NCBI RefSeq assembly: GCF_900188395.1
Contig: NZ_FZOB01000003.1
Location: forward strand, 62,001 to 126,000
Direction of reading: 5' to 3'
Length of the DNA stretch: 64,000 nucleotides
Source: Desulfurobacterium atlanticum
Lineage (GTDB): Bacteria; Aquificota; Aquificia; Desulfurobacteriales; Desulfurobacteriaceae
The notes under the pieces are model-generated. The model worked only from the letters and a program-made list of their open reading frames with translations. It was not told the DNA's origin and did no database searches. A program made the position numbers and the translations under genes. Of the stretch, positions 36,220 through 43,173 are shown piece after piece. Position 1 is the first letter of the stretch; every line of letters starts with the position of its first letter.

Positions 36220-37758
36220 ATGAGTTTAAGAGAGAAAGTAGGAAAATATGAATTTTTATTAATGGTGCTTGTAGTATTTGCATTTTTCTTGCCTCTTGGA
36301 CTTTACCCCCTTTTTGACCTTGATGAGGGAGCTTTTAGTGAAGCCACAAGGGAGATGCTTATTTCAGGTAATTACATTACCACATATCTTAACGGTGTTC
36401 CAAGGTTTGATAAGCCTATTCTAATATACTGGCTTCAGGCTTTGAGTGTTAAGATTTTTGGTCTTAATGAGTTTGCATTTAGATTTCCTTCTGCTTTAGC
36501 AGCTGCTTTCTGGGCAGCAGGAATCTATTTCTTCACAAAGAAATATTTTGGTAGAAGAAGTGCAATTTTTGCAACACTTTTTATGGTTTCATCTCTTCAG
36601 ATAAATATGATAGCAAAGGCGGCAATTGCAGATGCACTGCTTAATATGTTTATAGCTTTTTCAATGTTTTCCTTGTGGATATTTATAGAAAAGAAGGAAA
36701 ACAAGTATATTTATCTGTCGTTCCTTTTCATAGGATTTGGAACATTAACAAAAGGACCTGTAGCAATTTTGATTCCTCTTGCAACATTCTTTTTTTATTC
36801 CCTTTTTACACGGAACCTTGGGAAATTTTTTAAAGCTTTTTTTAACTTGAAAGGAATAGCAATTTTCTCTGCAGTGGCACTTCCATGGTACATTCTTGAG
36901 TATCTTGATCAGGGTATGAATTTTGTAAGAGGATTCTTTTTAAAACACAACCTTGAGCGGTTTAAAAAACCTTTAGAAAAGCACAGTGGCAGCTTTCTTT
37001 ACTACGTGCCGGTAATTCTTACCGGCTTACTTCCCTTTACCACTCTCTTTTTATCTTTTTTAAAGCGGATGAAAGAGTTTTTGTATAAGGATATAGGTCT
37101 ATTTCTTTCTATCTGGTTTTTCTTTGTTTTTCTCTTCTTCTCTTTTTCGGGAACGAAGCTACCTCACTATGTGATTTACGGATATACTCCAGTTTTTATA
37201 TTTATGGGAGCTGTGTTTGATAAATTTTATAAGGGAGTTGATTTAAAACTTGTAGTTCCTCCTTTGATTCTTTTGATTTTTCTCTTTTTCTTTCCAGATA
37301 TTGCTGTTTTTTCAAAGCGATTTATTAAAGATATGTATATAAAAGCTCTGCTTGATGGTGTTCCGGAGTATTTTAATTTTACCTACAGAGTTTTGATAGC
37401 TGTTTGTGGTGGAGTGATTTTAGCAATACCTTTTATAAAACTGGATAGAGTGGTAAAACTTTTTATTGTTTCTTTTTCGTTCCTTTTTGTCGTAAACTAC
37501 GTTGTTGCACCATCTTATGCCAATGTTGTGCAGCTTCCTATAAAGGAGGCTGGGTTAATTGCGAAAGATAAAGGATACAAAGTTGTTATGTATGGCTTAA
37601 ATGTTCCAAGTTTTATTGTTTATTCTGAAAGGCTTGTTGAAAAGAGAAAACCAAAAAAAGGCGATGTTGTTCTAACTAAGATTTCAAAGCTTAAAAATAT
37701 AAAATCCTACGAAATAATTTATCACAAAAACGGTATCTATCTTATAAAGGTAAAGTAG
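36220..37758 (+). CDS. GT39/ArnT-like membrane glycosyltransferase
   Basis: A 512-residue protein with about 12 predicted membrane spans. The first periplasmic loop has FDLDEGAFSEATREML followed by PRFDKPILIYWLQ; the DE pair and the KP(I/P)L-W segment are the hallmark of ArnT/PMT-type transferases that use polyprenyl-phosphate sugars. It probably adds a sugar to lipid A or another envelope molecule at the outer face of the inner membrane. The donor and acceptor are not readable. A perfect hairpin begins at its stop codon. Confidence 0.85.
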   Translation: MSLREKVGKYEFLLMVLVVFAFFLPLGLYPLFDLDEGAFSEATREMLISGNYITTYLNGVPRFDKPILIYWLQALSVKIFGLNEFAFRFPSALAAAFWAAGIYFFTKKYFGRRSAIFATLFMVSSLQINMIAKAAIADALLNMFIAFSMFSLWIFIEKKENKYIYLSFLFIGFGTLTKGPVAILIPLATFFFYSLFTRNLGKFFKAFFNLKGIAIFSAVALPWYILEYLDQGMNFVRGFFLKHNLERFKKPLEKHSGSFLYYVPVILTGLLPFTTLFLSFLKRMKEFLYKDIGLFLSIWFFFVFLFFSFSGTKLPHYVIYGYTPVFIFMGAVFDKFYKGVDLKLVVPPLILLIFLFFFPDIAVFSKRFIKDMYIKALLDGVPEYFNFTYRVLIAVCGGVILAIPFIKLDRVVKLFIVSFSFLFVVNYVVAPSYANVVQLPIKEAGLIAKDKGYKVVMYGLNVPSFIVYSERLVEKRKPKKGDVVLTKISKLKNIKSYEIIYHKNGIYLIKVK

Positions 37759-38297
37759 CAGGATACTATGAAGTATCCTGCTATGCCTGAGAGGAAACCG
37801 ATTAGTCCTCCGACTAAAACATCAAACGGAAAGTGAGCTCCCATATATACTCTTCCTATTCCTATTGTTATTGCGTAGATTGTAAATACAAGTATCAGGA
37901 GTGGATTTGCGTAAAATATTATTGAGCCAAGAAGCGTAAAGGCAAAAGCGGAATCTGCTGAAGGAAAGCTTTTTAAAGTTACCTGCTCAAGAAGTTTTAC
38001 ATTTTCCATAAGTTTTGACGGTCTGTAGTGTTTAAATGTGTATTTGATTAAAGGCATAAGGATACCTGTAATAATCATTGACAGTGTAAGGTGGATGACA
38101 GCTTTTTTCCCTCCTGCAATGTAAAAAATTGGATAAAACAGAGGAAGGGAGTAAGTTTTTCCAAGACGGAAAAAGTATTTATAAAACGTGTTTAACCTGT
38201 CTATGTCTATGTTGTTTATTTTTCTGAAAAGCTTCACATTCCATTTCATTTTCATTTCCCAGTCAGGGGGAAAGAGTCTATCTTTCTTTTTTTTCAT
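37737..38297 (-). CDS. PAP2-family membrane phosphatase
   Basis: A 186-residue membrane protein with about five spans. Two of the three PAP2 motifs are intact: Lys85 to Arg92-Pro93 (K-x6-RP) and Arg149, His155, Asp159 (R-x5-H-x3-D). The middle motif, usually PSGH, reads PSAD (112-115), so its His is replaced by Asp. It would act on lipid phosphates such as undecaprenyl or lipid A phosphates if active. It overlaps the PHP gene upstream by 4 bases and the convergent transferase gene by 22. Confidence 0.82.
   Translation of the reverse strand: MKKKKDRLFPPDWEMKMKWNVKLFRKINNIDIDRLNTFYKYFFRLGKTYSLPLFYPIFYIAGGKKAVIHLTLSMIITGILMPLIKYTFKHYRPSKLMENVKLLEQVTLKSFPSADSAFAFTLLGSIIFYANPLLILVFTIYAITIGIGRVYMGAHFPFDVLVGGLIGFLSGIAGYFIVSCYFTFIR
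37756..37783. terminator. Perfect 12-bp hairpin at convergent gene ends
   Basis: TAGCAGGATACT and AGTATCCTGCTA pair perfectly around ATGA. The left arm starts with the stop codon of the plus-strand transferase; the whole structure lies inside the last codons of the minus-strand PAP2 gene. There is no T-run on the plus side; the minus side is followed by CTTTACCTTT. Confidence 0.55.
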
Positions 38298-39373
38298 TTT
38301 GTAACCTCAAAGTAGTTTGTTATTGCAACAGGTTTGAACCCAAAATATAGATTTCCCAAACGAAAGTCGTATTCAAAAACTTCTACGTGATAGAATCCTT
38401 CATCTTCAAGTTTAAAAGTAAAAGCTGGCTTATCAGTTATTTTTATAGGATTGCCGTCTTTTTTTATCATTTTAAGTGTTTTTTTCTTTTTTGCGGAAAT
38501 GTTTAAGATAGAACCTGAAGGGACTTTTTCTCCAGGAAGAAAAACTTTTCCGTTTTTCGTACATAGAAAGTCTCCTTCAAAACCTTCTATGGATAAATAA
38601 AGATTTCCGTTTGCTATCGCTTTCATTATGGATTCTTTATTTTTTATAGGTTTTCTGGAATAAATTTTGTTTATCAACCATCTGAATCCGTTTATGTAGG
38701 ACGGGATTAGAATTCCGTGGGTGTGTTCCTGATATACTGCTTTTATATGGATATCAAGTCCGCCAATGATTTTAAGTTTTTTTGCCCTTTCTGTGTAAAG
38801 TTTACTCCACGTTTCAAGAGGTATAAGGGAGTTCCACTTTCTCAAGAGATTCCTTGTAAAGGGCCAGAAAAAAATATTTTTAATAAGCGTAGCTATTGTA
38901 AGGGGCTTGTTCCATACGATTGCGTCTTTTATGTTTATAATTTCGTATAGATGGTCTTCTTTAAACTCTCCTTTCCATCTGTAGTGGTCAAATTCAAAGT
39001 TATTTGGATGGGAGATAACAGGAATTTTATTTCCAAGGAGCAAAAGTCTTCCTGACGGTGTGTTTTTTTCAACACCTGTTATCGTTCTTTCATCTTCAAA
39101 AAATTTATAGTTGTCATTGTCATGGTCTGTGATAAAAGCATAGTCTATGGCGTTAACTTCCATCGCTTTTTTTATGTCGGAAGGTTTTCCAAGTGAATCT
39201 CTTGAAAACTGTGTGTGAATGTGAATTGCAACATTGTATCTGTATATGTTTTGTGGAATCTTAACTTTATATGAAAGTCCTTTTTCCAGTTTTTTCAGCC
39301 TCTTTATTGGTCTTATATCAAGATAGAAGAAGAAAAGCAGCAGGAGAAAAATCACAAAAAACAGAGGGAACAT
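38294..39373 (-). CDS. Membrane-anchored PHP-domain phosphoesterase
   Basis: A 359-residue protein. Residues 2-18 are a single hydrophobic anchor. The PHP metal motifs follow: AIHIHTQFSRDS (about residues 49-60), ITDHDND, VISHPNNF and GGLDIHIKA. The C-terminal about 100 residues look like a beta domain, as found in carbohydrate- or lipid-linked PHP proteins. The substrate is unknown. It sits between an MsbA-type exporter and a PAP2 phosphatase on one strand, suggesting a role in envelope lipid or glycan processing. Confidence 0.78.
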   Translation of the reverse strand: MFPLFFVIFLLLLFFFYLDIRPIKRLKKLEKGLSYKVKIPQNIYRYNVAIHIHTQFSRDSLGKPSDIKKAMEVNAIDYAFITDHDNDNYKFFEDERTITGVEKNTPSGRLLLLGNKIPVISHPNNFEFDHYRWKGEFKEDHLYEIINIKDAIVWNKPLTIATLIKNIFFWPFTRNLLRKWNSLIPLETWSKLYTERAKKLKIIGGLDIHIKAVYQEHTHGILIPSYINGFRWLINKIYSRKPIKNKESIMKAIANGNLYLSIEGFEGDFLCTKNGKVFLPGEKVPSGSILNISAKKKKTLKMIKKDGNPIKITDKPAFTFKLEDEGFYHVEVFEYDFRLGNLYFGFKPVAITNYFEVTK

Positions 39374-39384
39374 TTAACCTCCTT

Positions 39385-41094
39385 TTAATTTTCTGTTTCT
39401 GATATTGTGCAAAATTTATAAAAAGCTCCCTTTTTAGCAATAAGCTCATCTTTTGTTCCCTCTTCCACAATTTTTCCGTTTTCCATAACTATTATTCTGT
39501 TAGCTATTTTAAGGGTTTTTAATCTGTGGGTTATCATAAGAATGGTTTTATCTTTAAAGTGGTTTTTTATCTCTTCCATAACGTACTCTTCGGTTTCAAC
39601 ATCAAGGGCTGATGTAGCTTCATCAATTATGAGAATATCTGGATTTTTAAGGAATATTCGTGCTATTGCTATTCTTTGCCGCTCTCCACCAGAAAGTCTT
39701 GATCCTTTCTCACCAAGCACCGTATCAAGGCCGTGTTCAAGTTTAAAAACAAAGTTAGCTTTTGCCTTTTTAAGGGCTTCTATAAGTTCCTCATCTGTTG
39801 CGTCAGGTTTGGCCACTAAAAGGTTGTTTCTAAGTGTATCGTTGAAAATGAACACTTCCTGGGATATCATGCCTATTCTGTTCCTTATACTTGGAAGTGA
39901 ATATTTTTTTAGTTCAGTTCCATCTATTAAAACTTCTCCTGCATATTCTTTAACAAGTCCCGGTAGAATTTTTACAAGGGTAGATTTTCCTGAACCGGTT
40001 AATCCAACTATTCCTATTTTTTCTCCCTTTCTAACTGTAAAATTTATATCTTTCAGAATATGGTTGTTACCTATTATTACATTGACATTTTTATATTCAA
40101 TTTTGTCCTTTAACCCGTTAAAATCTGCTCCTTCAGCTTTTTCTTCAGGAATATTAAGAATAAACTGGATTCTTTCAATTACAGGGGATAAAGCTTTTAG
40201 GTTTATGATGCCTCTTTGTAGAATCTGCATAGAGTTAATAATTATCAAAACTCCACCGAGGAAAGAGAAGAAATCTCCCGGTGTTATCTCTCCTTTTATG
40301 ATTCTTATTCCACCGTAAAATATTATTCCACCTGTGGCTGCGTATGCCAGTATTTCTGTTGTTGATAGATAAACTGTTTCGTAGAACTTACTTTTTTTCT
40401 GCCTTTCAAATAGAGTTTCATTTATTCTTTCAAAAACTTTGAAAAAGATGGTCTTTTTAAACAGCTTTACAACTTCAAAGCCTGAAATTATCTGATTCAG
40501 GTGCTGGATGTAATCTGAAAAACTTTCCTGCTGTTTTTGAGAGTATTTTTTTCTTTTGTTTCCGAGAAAATCTAAAGCCAGACTTAGAAAGGGGATTATT
40601 ATTGTAAAAATAAGAAACATTCTCCAGTCTCTGTAGATGAGAACTATTATGACTCCTATTACTGTAAATGTTTCTGTGATTATGTTTGTTCCTATTGTGG
40701 AGGATATTTCTGCAAATTTTTCAAGGTCTGTGGTTGCTCTGCTTATAAGGTCACCAGGGGAAATTTTCCTTAAAAAAGAAGGTTCTGCGTTTATTATTTT
40801 TTCATGCATTTTTTTTCTTAAATCTTTAACTGCTTTAAATATTACAAGGGGATAGATATAATTTTTAAGAAAGAATCCTATCTGTTTTGAGACTGCAAGA
40901 AGTAGAAGAATAGATACAACTACAACAAGCTTTTCGTAGCTTTTGGCTATAAATACATCATCAACAACATTTTTTACAATATATGCAAGTCCCGCAAGTC
41001 CTATAGATTCAAGAATAGAACCAAATATTGCCAGAGCAACTAACTTCCAATCTTTTTTTAGGATGAGGAGAAGGAACTTTATATCTTTTCGCAT
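39385..41094 (-). CDS. msbA: ABC exporter, MsbA type (lipid A flippase-like)
   Basis: A 569-residue half-transporter: six membrane spans in residues 1-310, then the ATPase domain with Walker A GIVGLTGSGKSTLV, signature RLSGGERQRIAIARIF and Walker B ILIIDEATSALD. The domain order and length fit MsbA and related lipid or drug exporters. Neighbouring glycosyltransferases, PAP2 and PHP genes favour a lipid A or glycolipid substrate, but this is inference. A minus-strand extended -10 (TGTTATACT) lies about 30 bases before the start. Confidence 0.88.
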   Translation of the reverse strand: MRKDIKFLLLILKKDWKLVALAIFGSILESIGLAGLAYIVKNVVDDVFIAKSYEKLVVVVSILLLLAVSKQIGFFLKNYIYPLVIFKAVKDLRKKMHEKIINAEPSFLRKISPGDLISRATTDLEKFAEISSTIGTNIITETFTVIGVIIVLIYRDWRMFLIFTIIIPFLSLALDFLGNKRKKYSQKQQESFSDYIQHLNQIISGFEVVKLFKKTIFFKVFERINETLFERQKKSKFYETVYLSTTEILAYAATGGIIFYGGIRIIKGEITPGDFFSFLGGVLIIINSMQILQRGIINLKALSPVIERIQFILNIPEEKAEGADFNGLKDKIEYKNVNVIIGNNHILKDINFTVRKGEKIGIVGLTGSGKSTLVKILPGLVKEYAGEVLIDGTELKKYSLPSIRNRIGMISQEVFIFNDTLRNNLLVAKPDATDEELIEALKKAKANFVFKLEHGLDTVLGEKGSRLSGGERQRIAIARIFLKNPDILIIDEATSALDVETEEYVMEEIKNHFKDKTILMITHRLKTLKIANRIIVMENGKIVEEGTKDELIAKKGAFYKFCTISETEN

Positions 41095-41167: not shown

Positions 41168-41196
41168 TTGACATATAAAGGGATAGCTGATAAATT
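41168..41196 (+). promoter_or_regulatory. Sigma-70 promoter of the small gene
   Basis: TTGACA (41168-41173) and TAAATT (41191-41196) are separated by exactly 17 bases. This is the closest match to the housekeeping consensus that I saw in the window. The start site would be near 41203. Confidence 0.8.
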
Positions 41197-41224
41197 TAAG
41201 TAAACTTAATATACGGGGGTTATT

Positions 41225-41308
41225 ATGGAAGCACTTGCACTTGCTGCTAAAGCATGGGGCATTCTTACTGCCTTTATAGCTATTGTTGGACCTTTGAAGG
41301 ATGAGTGA
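41225..41308 (+). CDS. 27-residue hydrophobic small protein, unknown
   Basis: The frame reads MEALALAAKAWGILTAF, then IAIVGPLKDE and a TGA stop. Residues 4-23 form one hydrophobic helix with a Trp near the middle and a charged KDE tail, i.e. a single-span membrane peptide. GGGGGT lies 4-9 bases before the ATG. A consensus sigma-70 promoter is upstream and a strong terminator begins 4 bases after the stop, giving a predicted transcript of about 130 bases dedicated to this gene. It is on the plus strand between minus-strand msbA and the CCG-subunit gene. I do not recognise it; small respiratory-complex subunits, type I toxin-like peptides, or a non-coding RNA are alternatives. Confidence 0.6.
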   Translation: MEALALAAKAWGILTAFIAIVGPLKDE

Positions 41309-41311
41309 TTT

Positions 41312-41334
41312 AAAGCCCGCAAGCGCGGGCTTTT
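41312..41334. terminator. Bidirectional terminator after the small gene
   Basis: AAAGCCCGC and GCGGGCTTT form a 9-bp stem with loop AAGC, with T on the plus side and A on the left. It serves the small gene and, in the other direction, the CCG-subunit gene ending at 41333. Confidence 0.9.
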
Positions 41335-42154
41335 ACAGTTTCACCGGTATTTTGTGGTAAATTATTCCTGAATCTTCATGAGAAAATCCAAGGGAAAGAG
41401 CTATAAGTTCTGGTAAGAAGAGGACTGGAATCTCTCTTTCAACTTTTGCTTCTTTCTGCATCATATCAAACCCCTTGAAACACAAGGGGCACGGAGTAAC
41501 TATAAACTCGGCTTCTGCTTCTTTCATACTGTTAACGATTCTTTTTATCTTCTTGAGGGCTGTTGCTTTGTCTGTATAAATTGAATGGTATCCGCAACAG
41601 GCGTCTTCTTCCTTATAGCGAATTGGTGTTCCACCGCATAATTCTATAATTTTTTCAAGACTTCCATGTTTTGCAATCTTTTCAGGATATTTGAGGTGGC
41701 AACCGTAGTAAGGGGCGAATCTGTAGGGAAGAGAAATTTTTATATATTCGGATAGCTTTTCAAATCCTATTTTTTCAACTATGAAAGGCATAATGTGCCA
41801 GATTTTTTTCTCTCCTGAATAGTAAAGGTTCTCCTCCTCAAGAATTTTGTTAACCTTTTTTTTTACAGTTTCGCTGCTATCTAAAAGTTTCTTTGCACGG
41901 TTGATTACCATAAAACATGTATTACAGCTTATTAATAAGTCAAGATTCTCTTTTTCAGCTGCTGCAATATTTCTTGCGTTTATTAGTGTAGATAAAAATC
42001 TGCTTTCTTCATCTATAACGTTTCCACCGCAACATATGGTTTTCCTTACTTCAGGAAGTTCAACTCCAAATACGGAAAACACTTTTTTAATTACATCAAA
42101 CAGAATAAAATCAAGTCCTTGAAAACAGCAACCTCTATAAAAGCCTATTCGCAT
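41333..42154 (-). CDS. CCG-domain subunit of a fumarate/succinate reductase (SdhE/HdrB-like)
   Basis: A 273-residue protein with two Cys-rich CCG domains: YRGCCF...TICCGGNV...SCNTC in the first half and YYGCHLKYPE...DACCGYHS...TPCPLC in the second. Such subunits replace the haem membrane anchor in type-E succinate/fumarate reductases and form the heterodisulfide-reductase-like part of thiol:fumarate reductase. It overlaps the iron-sulfur subunit gene by 10 bases. The flavoprotein subunit is not adjacent. In a hydrogen-using autotroph the complex would reduce fumarate in the reductive TCA cycle or anaerobic respiration. Confidence 0.85.
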   Translation of the reverse strand: MRIGFYRGCCFQGLDFILFDVIKKVFSVFGVELPEVRKTICCGGNVIDEESRFLSTLINARNIAAAEKENLDLLISCNTCFMVINRAKKLLDSSETVKKKVNKILEEENLYYSGEKKIWHIMPFIVEKIGFEKLSEYIKISLPYRFAPYYGCHLKYPEKIAKHGSLEKIIELCGGTPIRYKEEDACCGYHSIYTDKATALKKIKRIVNSMKEAEAEFIVTPCPLCFKGFDMMQKEAKVEREIPVLFLPELIALSLGFSHEDSGIIYHKIPVKL

Positions 42155-43173
42155 TTATTGTCTCCTTTAAGGAGTTTTTCTATCTTTTCATCTATTTGTC
42201 TTATCTTTTTAAAATTAATGCTTTCAATGTCTCCTTCTTCTATTAAAGCCCGTATTATAAGATCCCTTAATGCCAAAAAGCCATCAGGAAGATGAGGAAT
42301 TTCCCAGATTTCAACTCCATGCTCTTTACAGAAATTTATAAAGTCGCGGACAGCTTTTTCATTATCATATACATCAAGAGGAAGATACAGTCTATTTATC
42401 TGCCCTGTTGCATAGACCCAGTTCAAGTAATGTGACAATTTACGTGCACCGGGGGTTTCTTTGTGTCCGAGCTTTACAGTTTCATTTCTGATTTTTTGAA
42501 TGTCGTGTGCTGGTGCTATGTTTTTAGGGCAAAAAGCAACACATTTTTGACACTGAACACATGACCATACAGAGGCGTTTAGTGCTATTTTCACACGTTC
42601 TTTATGGGTTTCTTCCTTTTCTCGTGAATCTGCTATAAACCGATAGGTTTTCACAAATGCAAAAGGTCCGGCAAAAGGAGTATTTTCTTTTAAAGTTTCA
42701 CACACGCTACAACAGGTAAGGCATAAAATACAGTCGGTTTCTTTAGAGTATTTTTCCACCTCATCGGGAGATATTTTAAATTCTTCATTTTCAGGAGGGA
42801 TTTTATTTTCAAGCCACAGTTTAAATCTTCTAAGTGTATCCTGCTTTCCTTCAATATCCACCACAAGGTCTTTTATTATTTTAAAGCCGTCTATTGGTTC
42901 AATTATAAGTTTTTCAACTTCAAATTCATCAACTATTTCTTTGATTTGGGTTTTACATGCAAGTAGTGGTTTTCCATTAACTCTTACTGTACATGACCCG
43001 CACACTCCGCTCCTGCAGAAGGCTCTAAAAGTAAGAGAAGGGTCTATGTTTTCTTTTATGTAGTTAAGGAGGTCTAAGATGGTGATACCTTCTTTAAATG
43101 GAACTTTAAATATATCATATCTAACTTTTTTCCCTTTCTTCGTTCGGAAGATCTTTACCTTTATTTCCTTCAC
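42145..43173 (-). CDS. Succinate dehydrogenase/fumarate reductase iron-sulfur subunit
   Basis: A 342-residue FrdB/SdhB-type protein, about 100 residues longer than the usual 240. The plant-type [2Fe-2S] ligands are in FCRSGVCGSCTVRVNGKP (about residues 53-70), and the bacterial ferredoxin part has CILCLTCCSVC near 151 and CVQCQKCVAFCPKN near 210. The additional C-terminal region (about 245-342) is helical and may dock the CCG subunit encoded next. The start is GTG at 43173 after GAGG. No flavoprotein gene is next to it; the upstream gene is a glycosyltransferase. Confidence 0.9.
   Translation of the reverse strand: MKEIKVKIFRTKKGKKVRYDIFKVPFKEGITILDLLNYIKENIDPSLTFRAFCRSGVCGSCTVRVNGKPLLACKTQIKEIVDEFEVEKLIIEPIDGFKIIKDLVVDIEGKQDTLRRFKLWLENKIPPENEEFKISPDEVEKYSKETDCILCLTCCSVCETLKENTPFAGPFAFVKTYRFIADSREKEETHKERVKIALNASVWSCVQCQKCVAFCPKNIAPAHDIQKIRNETVKLGHKETPGARKLSHYLNWVYATGQINRLYLPLDVYDNEKAVRDFINFCKEHGVEIWEIPHLPDGFLALRDLIIRALIEEGDIESINFKKIRQIDEKIEKLLKGDNKCE

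What the first reader, a model, noticed from the sequence alone, without database searches (positions are those of the whole stretch)
41168..41334. Unlisted 27-codon membrane peptide gene with its own promoter and terminator
A consensus promoter (TTGACA-N17-TAAATT), a ribosome site, an ATG-to-TGA frame for one hydrophobic helix with a central Trp, and a 9-bp GC-rich terminator are packed into about 170 bases on the strand opposite to both neighbours. Such complete, isolated expression signals are rare by chance and mark a dedicated small gene or RNA. It lies next to the CCG subunit of a fumarate/succinate reductase and an MsbA-like exporter, so a small partner subunit of a membrane complex is one idea. 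A type I toxin-like peptide or a pure sRNA are others.
Basis: partly seen in the sequence, partly recalled or inferred. Interest (0 to 1): 0.75.

Follow-up and report, generated by a model that had tools for sequence, protein, structure and literature searches.

The report
Conserved 27-residue membrane peptide gene
A hydrothermal-vent bacterium of the Desulfurobacterium group carries a real but tiny stand-alone gene for a 27-residue peptide that probably spans the membrane; it is kept almost unchanged in its nearest relatives, was found nowhere else we looked, and its partner and job are still unknown.

Summary
At 41168-41333 (+) lie a TTGACA-N17-TAAATT promoter with extended -10, a GGGGG ribosome site, a 27-codon frame (MEALALAAKAWGILTAFIAIVGPLKDE) and a 9-bp hairpin. 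All four held genomes of the window's own genus have the same promoter, ribosome site, frame and hairpin, always convergent with the CCG gene. The peptide is 88-100% identical, and codon changes are almost all silent (7 silent/0 replacing; 11-12/3). No neutral simulation (0 of 20,000) gave so few residue changes. The hairpin's letters change between species while its pairing is kept. So it is a translated, selected small-protein gene, not a chance ORF and not a pure sRNA. Beyond the genus nothing was found: 136 Aquificota genomes, 199 relatives, phages, plasmids, Pfam, NCBIfam, PHROGs, PADLOC, PDB. It is not CydX: the CydX motif is absent and the cyd operons carry their own small subunits. It lacks type I toxin marks (short leader, no conserved antisense promoter, single copy). 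MsbA is not a conserved neighbour; a tie to the fumarate-reductase-like genes is possible but unsupported. Best reading: a steadily expressed single-helix accessory protein of some membrane complex, partner unknown.

The parts
41168..41196 (+). sigma-70-type promoter TTGACATATAAAGGGATAGCTGATAAATT (-35 TTGACA, N17 spacer with TG before the -10, -10 TAAATT)
   Evidence: same 29-nt element in all 4 genomes of the genus and unique in each
41203..41224 (+). short 5' leader (inferred start of transcription about 41203) with ribosome site GGGGG 41215-41219
   Evidence: GGGGG or GGGGAGG at the same place in the relatives
41225..41308 (+). 27-codon gene: MEALALAAKAWGILTAFIAIVGPLKDE, TGA stop; one hydrophobic helix with invariant W11 and K9
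   Evidence: purifying selection on the reading frame
41312..41333 (+). intrinsic terminator hairpin AAAGCCCGC-AAGC-GCGGGCTTT, also placed to end the convergent CCG transcript
   Evidence: hairpin kept in all 4 genomes with different sequence
41333..42154 (-). neighbour, not part of the gene: CCG-domain (HdrB/SdhE-like) protein, convergent in all 4 genomes
39385..41094 (-). neighbour, not part of the gene: MsbA-like ABC exporter, not at this locus in G001/G002

Best explanation
A stand-alone, monocistronic gene for a 26-27-residue small membrane protein, found only in this genus-level clade. Shown: the frame is under strong selection as protein, and promoter, ribosome site and terminator are conserved around it. 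Inferred: it is transcribed steadily from a strong extended -10 promoter into an RNA of about 130 nt, translated, and inserts in the cytoplasmic membrane as a single helix (A3-L24). Inferred: it then packs against another membrane protein as an accessory or regulatory subunit, as CydX, KdpF or AcrZ do for their partners. The partner is not identified; nothing in the neighbourhood is co-transcribed with it.
For: Present once in each of 4/4 genomes of the genus, 88-100% identical, while the adjacent CCG protein is only 65-86% identical. Codon differences 7 silent/0 replacing (G000-G003), 11-12 silent/3 replacing, all conservative (E/D, T/V, L/I), against G001/G002. Neutral simulation 0 of 20,000 for each of these pairs; the other five frames change more. 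Promoter, ribosome site and hairpin kept in all four although the upstream neighbour differs (MsbA versus recG). Hydrophobic 19-residue mean 2.03-2.29 (Kyte-Doolittle) with low amphipathic moment. A single confident helix in AlphaFold2 (pLDDT 90, single sequence with 5 added upstream residues). Weak hint of a small-residue stripe A8-G12-T15/A16-A19-G22 on one face (shuffle p about 0.03, uncorrected).
Against: No transcript, peptide or localisation data. K9 lies inside the hydrophobic stretch, leaving a short uninterrupted core, so a surface-lying state is possible. No partner is identified; the accessory-subunit role rests on analogy. Four genomes only, in two pairs.
Confidence: 0.55

Rival explanations
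1. Small membrane anchor or accessory subunit specifically of the fumarate-reductase-like FrdB-CCG proteins encoded next door.
For: Adjacent to the CCG gene in 4/4 genomes of the genus across a rearrangement on the other side. In this genus the FrdB-CCG pair stands without FrdA, unlike in the other family genera, so its assembly may differ here.
Against: Convergent, not co-transcribed; separated by a shared terminator. The 13 other family genomes read next to the CCG gene have it without the peptide. Retained order is expected from a shared bidirectional terminator and from general synteny (the PMT-FrdB-CCG order is kept too).
Confidence: 0.12
2. Type I toxin-like membrane peptide controlled by an antisense RNA.
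For: Short, hydrophobic, one helix, stand-alone gene. A weak 9/12 antisense promoter match overlaps the start in G000 and G003.
Against: That antisense match is absent in G001/G002. Short leader; the predicted pairing of the ribosome site with the 3' codons is not kept in the four folds. Single copy, neutral to slightly negative charge. No phage or plasmid carriers.
Confidence: 0.08
3. A relocated small subunit of cytochrome bd (CydX-like).
For: Similar length and an invariant Trp; cydA is present in all four genomes and no haem-copper oxidase was found.
Against: The CydX motif YxxWxxGx15E/D (PMC4325964) is not met. The cyd operons of all four genomes already carry small one-helix ORFs after cydB, as in the other genera.
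Confidence: 0.03
4. A noncoding small RNA whose ORF is incidental.
For: Compact promoter-terminator unit of about 130 nt.
Against: Substitutions fall on third codon positions; folding energy of the whole transcript is ordinary (z -1.4) and the folds differ between species except for the terminator; no Rfam family.
Confidence: 0.03

Closest known systems
CydX (cytochrome bd small subunit) and other one-helix accessory subunits such as KdpF and AcrZ
   Same: Very short, one hydrophobic helix, chromosomal, single copy, conserved as protein
   Different: CydX sits in the cydAB operon and has YxxWxxGx15E/D (PMC4325964); this peptide is monocistronic, lacks the motif and has no known partner (KdpF and AcrZ compared from memory only)
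Type I toxin peptides (TisB, Ibs, Ldr; and TimP, PMC7667032)
   Same: Short hydrophobic peptide from its own small gene
   Different: No conserved antisense RNA promoter, no long or masked leader, not multi-copy, not cationic
Genus-restricted small-protein families catalogued in the GMSC (PMC11364881)
   Same: More than half of the small-protein families with three or more members there are genus-specific and most lack any annotation; this one fits that class
   Different: Whether this sequence is in that catalogue was not tested; here the regulatory signals and codon selection are documented too

Membership tests
Genuine small-protein gene (smORF) | Reading frame conserved with synonymous bias | tested here: met
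   7 silent/0 replacing; 11-12/3; 0 of 20,000 neutral simulations as conserved
Genuine small-protein gene (smORF) | Conserved promoter, ribosome site, terminator | tested here: met
Genuine small-protein gene (smORF) | Transcript and peptide detected | not testable with these tools
   no RNA or peptide data held for this clade
CydX | Motif YxxWxxGx15E/D | tested here: not met
   A8 and L14 stand where Y and G should be relative to W11 (motif from PMC4325964)
CydX | Located in the cydAB operon | tested here: not met
   cydAB is on another contig, with its own small ORFs
Type I toxin | Antisense RNA gene overlapping or flanking the toxin mRNA | tested here: not met
   weak promoter match in two genomes only; no RNA data, so this is by sequence only
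Type I toxin | Structured or masked translation start, usually in a long leader (many but not all type I toxins) | tested here: not met
   about 22-26 nt leader; no conserved masking structure
Type I toxin | Toxic when over-expressed | not testable with these tools
   needs an experiment
Structured sRNA (Rfam) | Match to a known RNA family | tested here: not met
   (only RsmY at E 0.42, on the other strand and far below its gathering score)
Subunit of SdhE/MFR-type fumarate reductase | Co-transcribed with, or co-occurring with, FrdAB-CCG | tested here: not met
   convergent; CCG without the peptide in the other genera
Known Pfam/NCBIfam/PHROGs/PADLOC/PDB families | Profile or sequence match | tested here: not met
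   no match up to E 10

The most novel reading that the evidence does not exclude
The peptide is an undescribed, clade-specific subunit of a respiratory or quinone-linked membrane complex (for example one working with the FrdA-less FrdB-CCG pair), gained when this clade reorganised its fumarate reductases.
Probability: 0.1. Interest if true: 0.6.

Novelty: new member of a known kind. Interest (0 to 1): 0.36.

Why it matters
Single-helix proteins below 30 residues are usually not annotated. This one can be called a gene from comparative evidence alone, in a thermophilic vent lineage of Aquificota, and adds an undescribed family. If a partner were found it would show an accessory subunit private to one genus, and the promoter-plus-codon test used here could be applied to other missed genes.

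Tried and rejected
Distant homologues: HMM and protein searches in 136 Aquificota genomes and 199 relatives gave only chance-level hits outside the genus. The best-looking ones in small frames were inspected and are fragments without ribosome site or matching layout. Positional homologues: regions beside CCG (13 other family genomes) and after recG (10 other family genomes) hold no comparable peptide. A family-wide degenerate DNA pattern gave mostly chance matches, as many as the reversed control in several genomes. MsbA partnership rejected because MsbA is not at this locus in G001/G002. CydX rejected. Leader or attenuator peptide rejected: nothing lies downstream on the same strand. Phage/plasmid origin: no match. 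RNA structure other than the terminator: not conserved.

Full report
What was checked. Each element alone is not remarkable: eight promoter-like matches in 1.5 kb against 4.7 expected. The case has to rest on comparison.

Where it lies. The window belongs to an Aquificota genome of the family Desulfurobacteriaceae. The nearest named record is a MAG called Desulfurobacterium sp.. G005 of the family has one contig of 1,541,968 bases, the published length of the D. thermolithotrophum type strain, and the tool places it in another genus. So the window's genus is a sister clade of Desulfurobacterium in the strict sense. It has four held genomes: G000 (own), G003, G001 and G002.

Conservation. All four genomes have the gene once. 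The peptides are MEALALAAKAWGILTAFIAIVGPLKDE (G000, G003) and MDALALAAKAWGILVAFIAIVGPIKD (G001, G002), 88% identical, while the neighbouring CCG protein is 65-68% identical between G000 and G001/G002 and 86% between G000 and G003. Codon differences are 7 silent and none replacing between G000 and G003, 3 and none between G002 and G001, and 11-12 silent with 3 conservative replacements between the pairs. Placing the same number of base changes at random never gave so few residue changes in 20,000 trials for G000 against each of the other three; the other five frames show more changes.

Signals. The promoter TTGACATATAnRnRnATAGnTGnTAAATT, the ribosome site and the hairpin are present in all four genomes. 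With up to three mismatches the promoter pattern occurs only in front of this gene in these genomes, with one unrelated hit elsewhere in the family. The exact extended hexamer pair occurs once in the own genome. The hairpin differs in sequence between species while staying paired, and it folds on both strands, so it can end both this RNA and the convergent CCG RNA. The rest of the RNA shows no conserved structure, and its folding energy is ordinary (z -1.4). Rfam has nothing here.

Neighbourhood. In G000 and G003 the gene lies between an MsbA-like exporter and CCG. In G001 and G002 recG lies directly upstream on the same strand and the exporter is not at this locus. The constant neighbour is CCG, always convergent. 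The other genera of the family have CCG and recG without any comparable peptide beside them. In those genera CCG belongs to an FrdA-FrdB-CCG cluster (read in G005; FrdA placed next to CCG by coordinates in the others). In the window's genus the FrdB-CCG pair has no FrdA beside it, and a separate FrdA-anchor-anchor-FrdB cluster lies elsewhere. This makes a link with the reductase thinkable, but no result supports it directly.

What the peptide looks like. It has one hydrophobic stretch, A3-L24, with K9 and W11 in its first half, a KDE or KD end and net charge 0 or -1; its amphipathic moment is low. AlphaFold2 on a single sequence gives one helix with mean pLDDT 90 (five upstream codons had to be added to reach the minimum length). 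Small residues lean to one face of the second part of the helix (p about 0.03, uncorrected). This is at most a hint of packing against another helix.

Known families. No match in Pfam, NCBIfam, PHROGs, PADLOC or PDB sequences up to E 10, and none in phages or plasmids. CydX was the most natural candidate because all four genomes have cydA and no haem-copper oxidase was found. The CydX motif YxxWxxGx15E/D (PMC4325964) is not met, and the cyd operons have their own small one-helix ORFs after cydB, in this genus and in the others. Type I toxin features were looked for and not found: no conserved antisense promoter, short leader, single copy.

Conclusion. It is a real, clade-specific small-protein gene, with about 0.97 confidence on that point (my estimate). 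Its most likely role is a steadily made single-helix accessory protein of a membrane complex, with 0.55 confidence and no partner named. Such genus-specific small-protein families are common (PMC11364881), so the novelty is modest.

Limits. Four genomes in two pairs; no RNA or protein data; searches with 27 residues lose distant homologues; large genome and metagenome collections were not scanned with the peptide.

Noticed in passing
L159:2201-2284 (-) and L159:1687-1785 (-), with counterparts in L160-L168: The cydAB operons of Desulfurobacteriaceae are followed by small one-helix ORFs: a 27-32-residue MWF/MWL...KLEG or KFEG type in every genome read, and a 32-34-residue MEKVQDN.../MENSPIK... 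type a little further on. The first looks like a CydX/CydY-type subunit.
   Followed up: partly
window 41333-43173 (-): In this genus the FrdB-CCG pair has no FrdA next to it, while other genera of the family have FrdA-FrdB-CCG at the equivalent cluster and a divergent second copy beside it.
   Followed up: partly
L143:4007-7089 (-): A separate cluster of FrdA, two short membrane-anchor-like ORFs and FrdB; its FrdA is only 48% identical to that of the other genera.
   Followed up: no
window 36220-41094: A glycosyltransferase-like gene, two further genes (one with a weak PHP-domain match) and an MsbA-like gene stand between recG and the peptide gene in G000 and G003 but not in G001/G002, which suggests insertion or loss of a cell-surface gene block.
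   Followed up: partly
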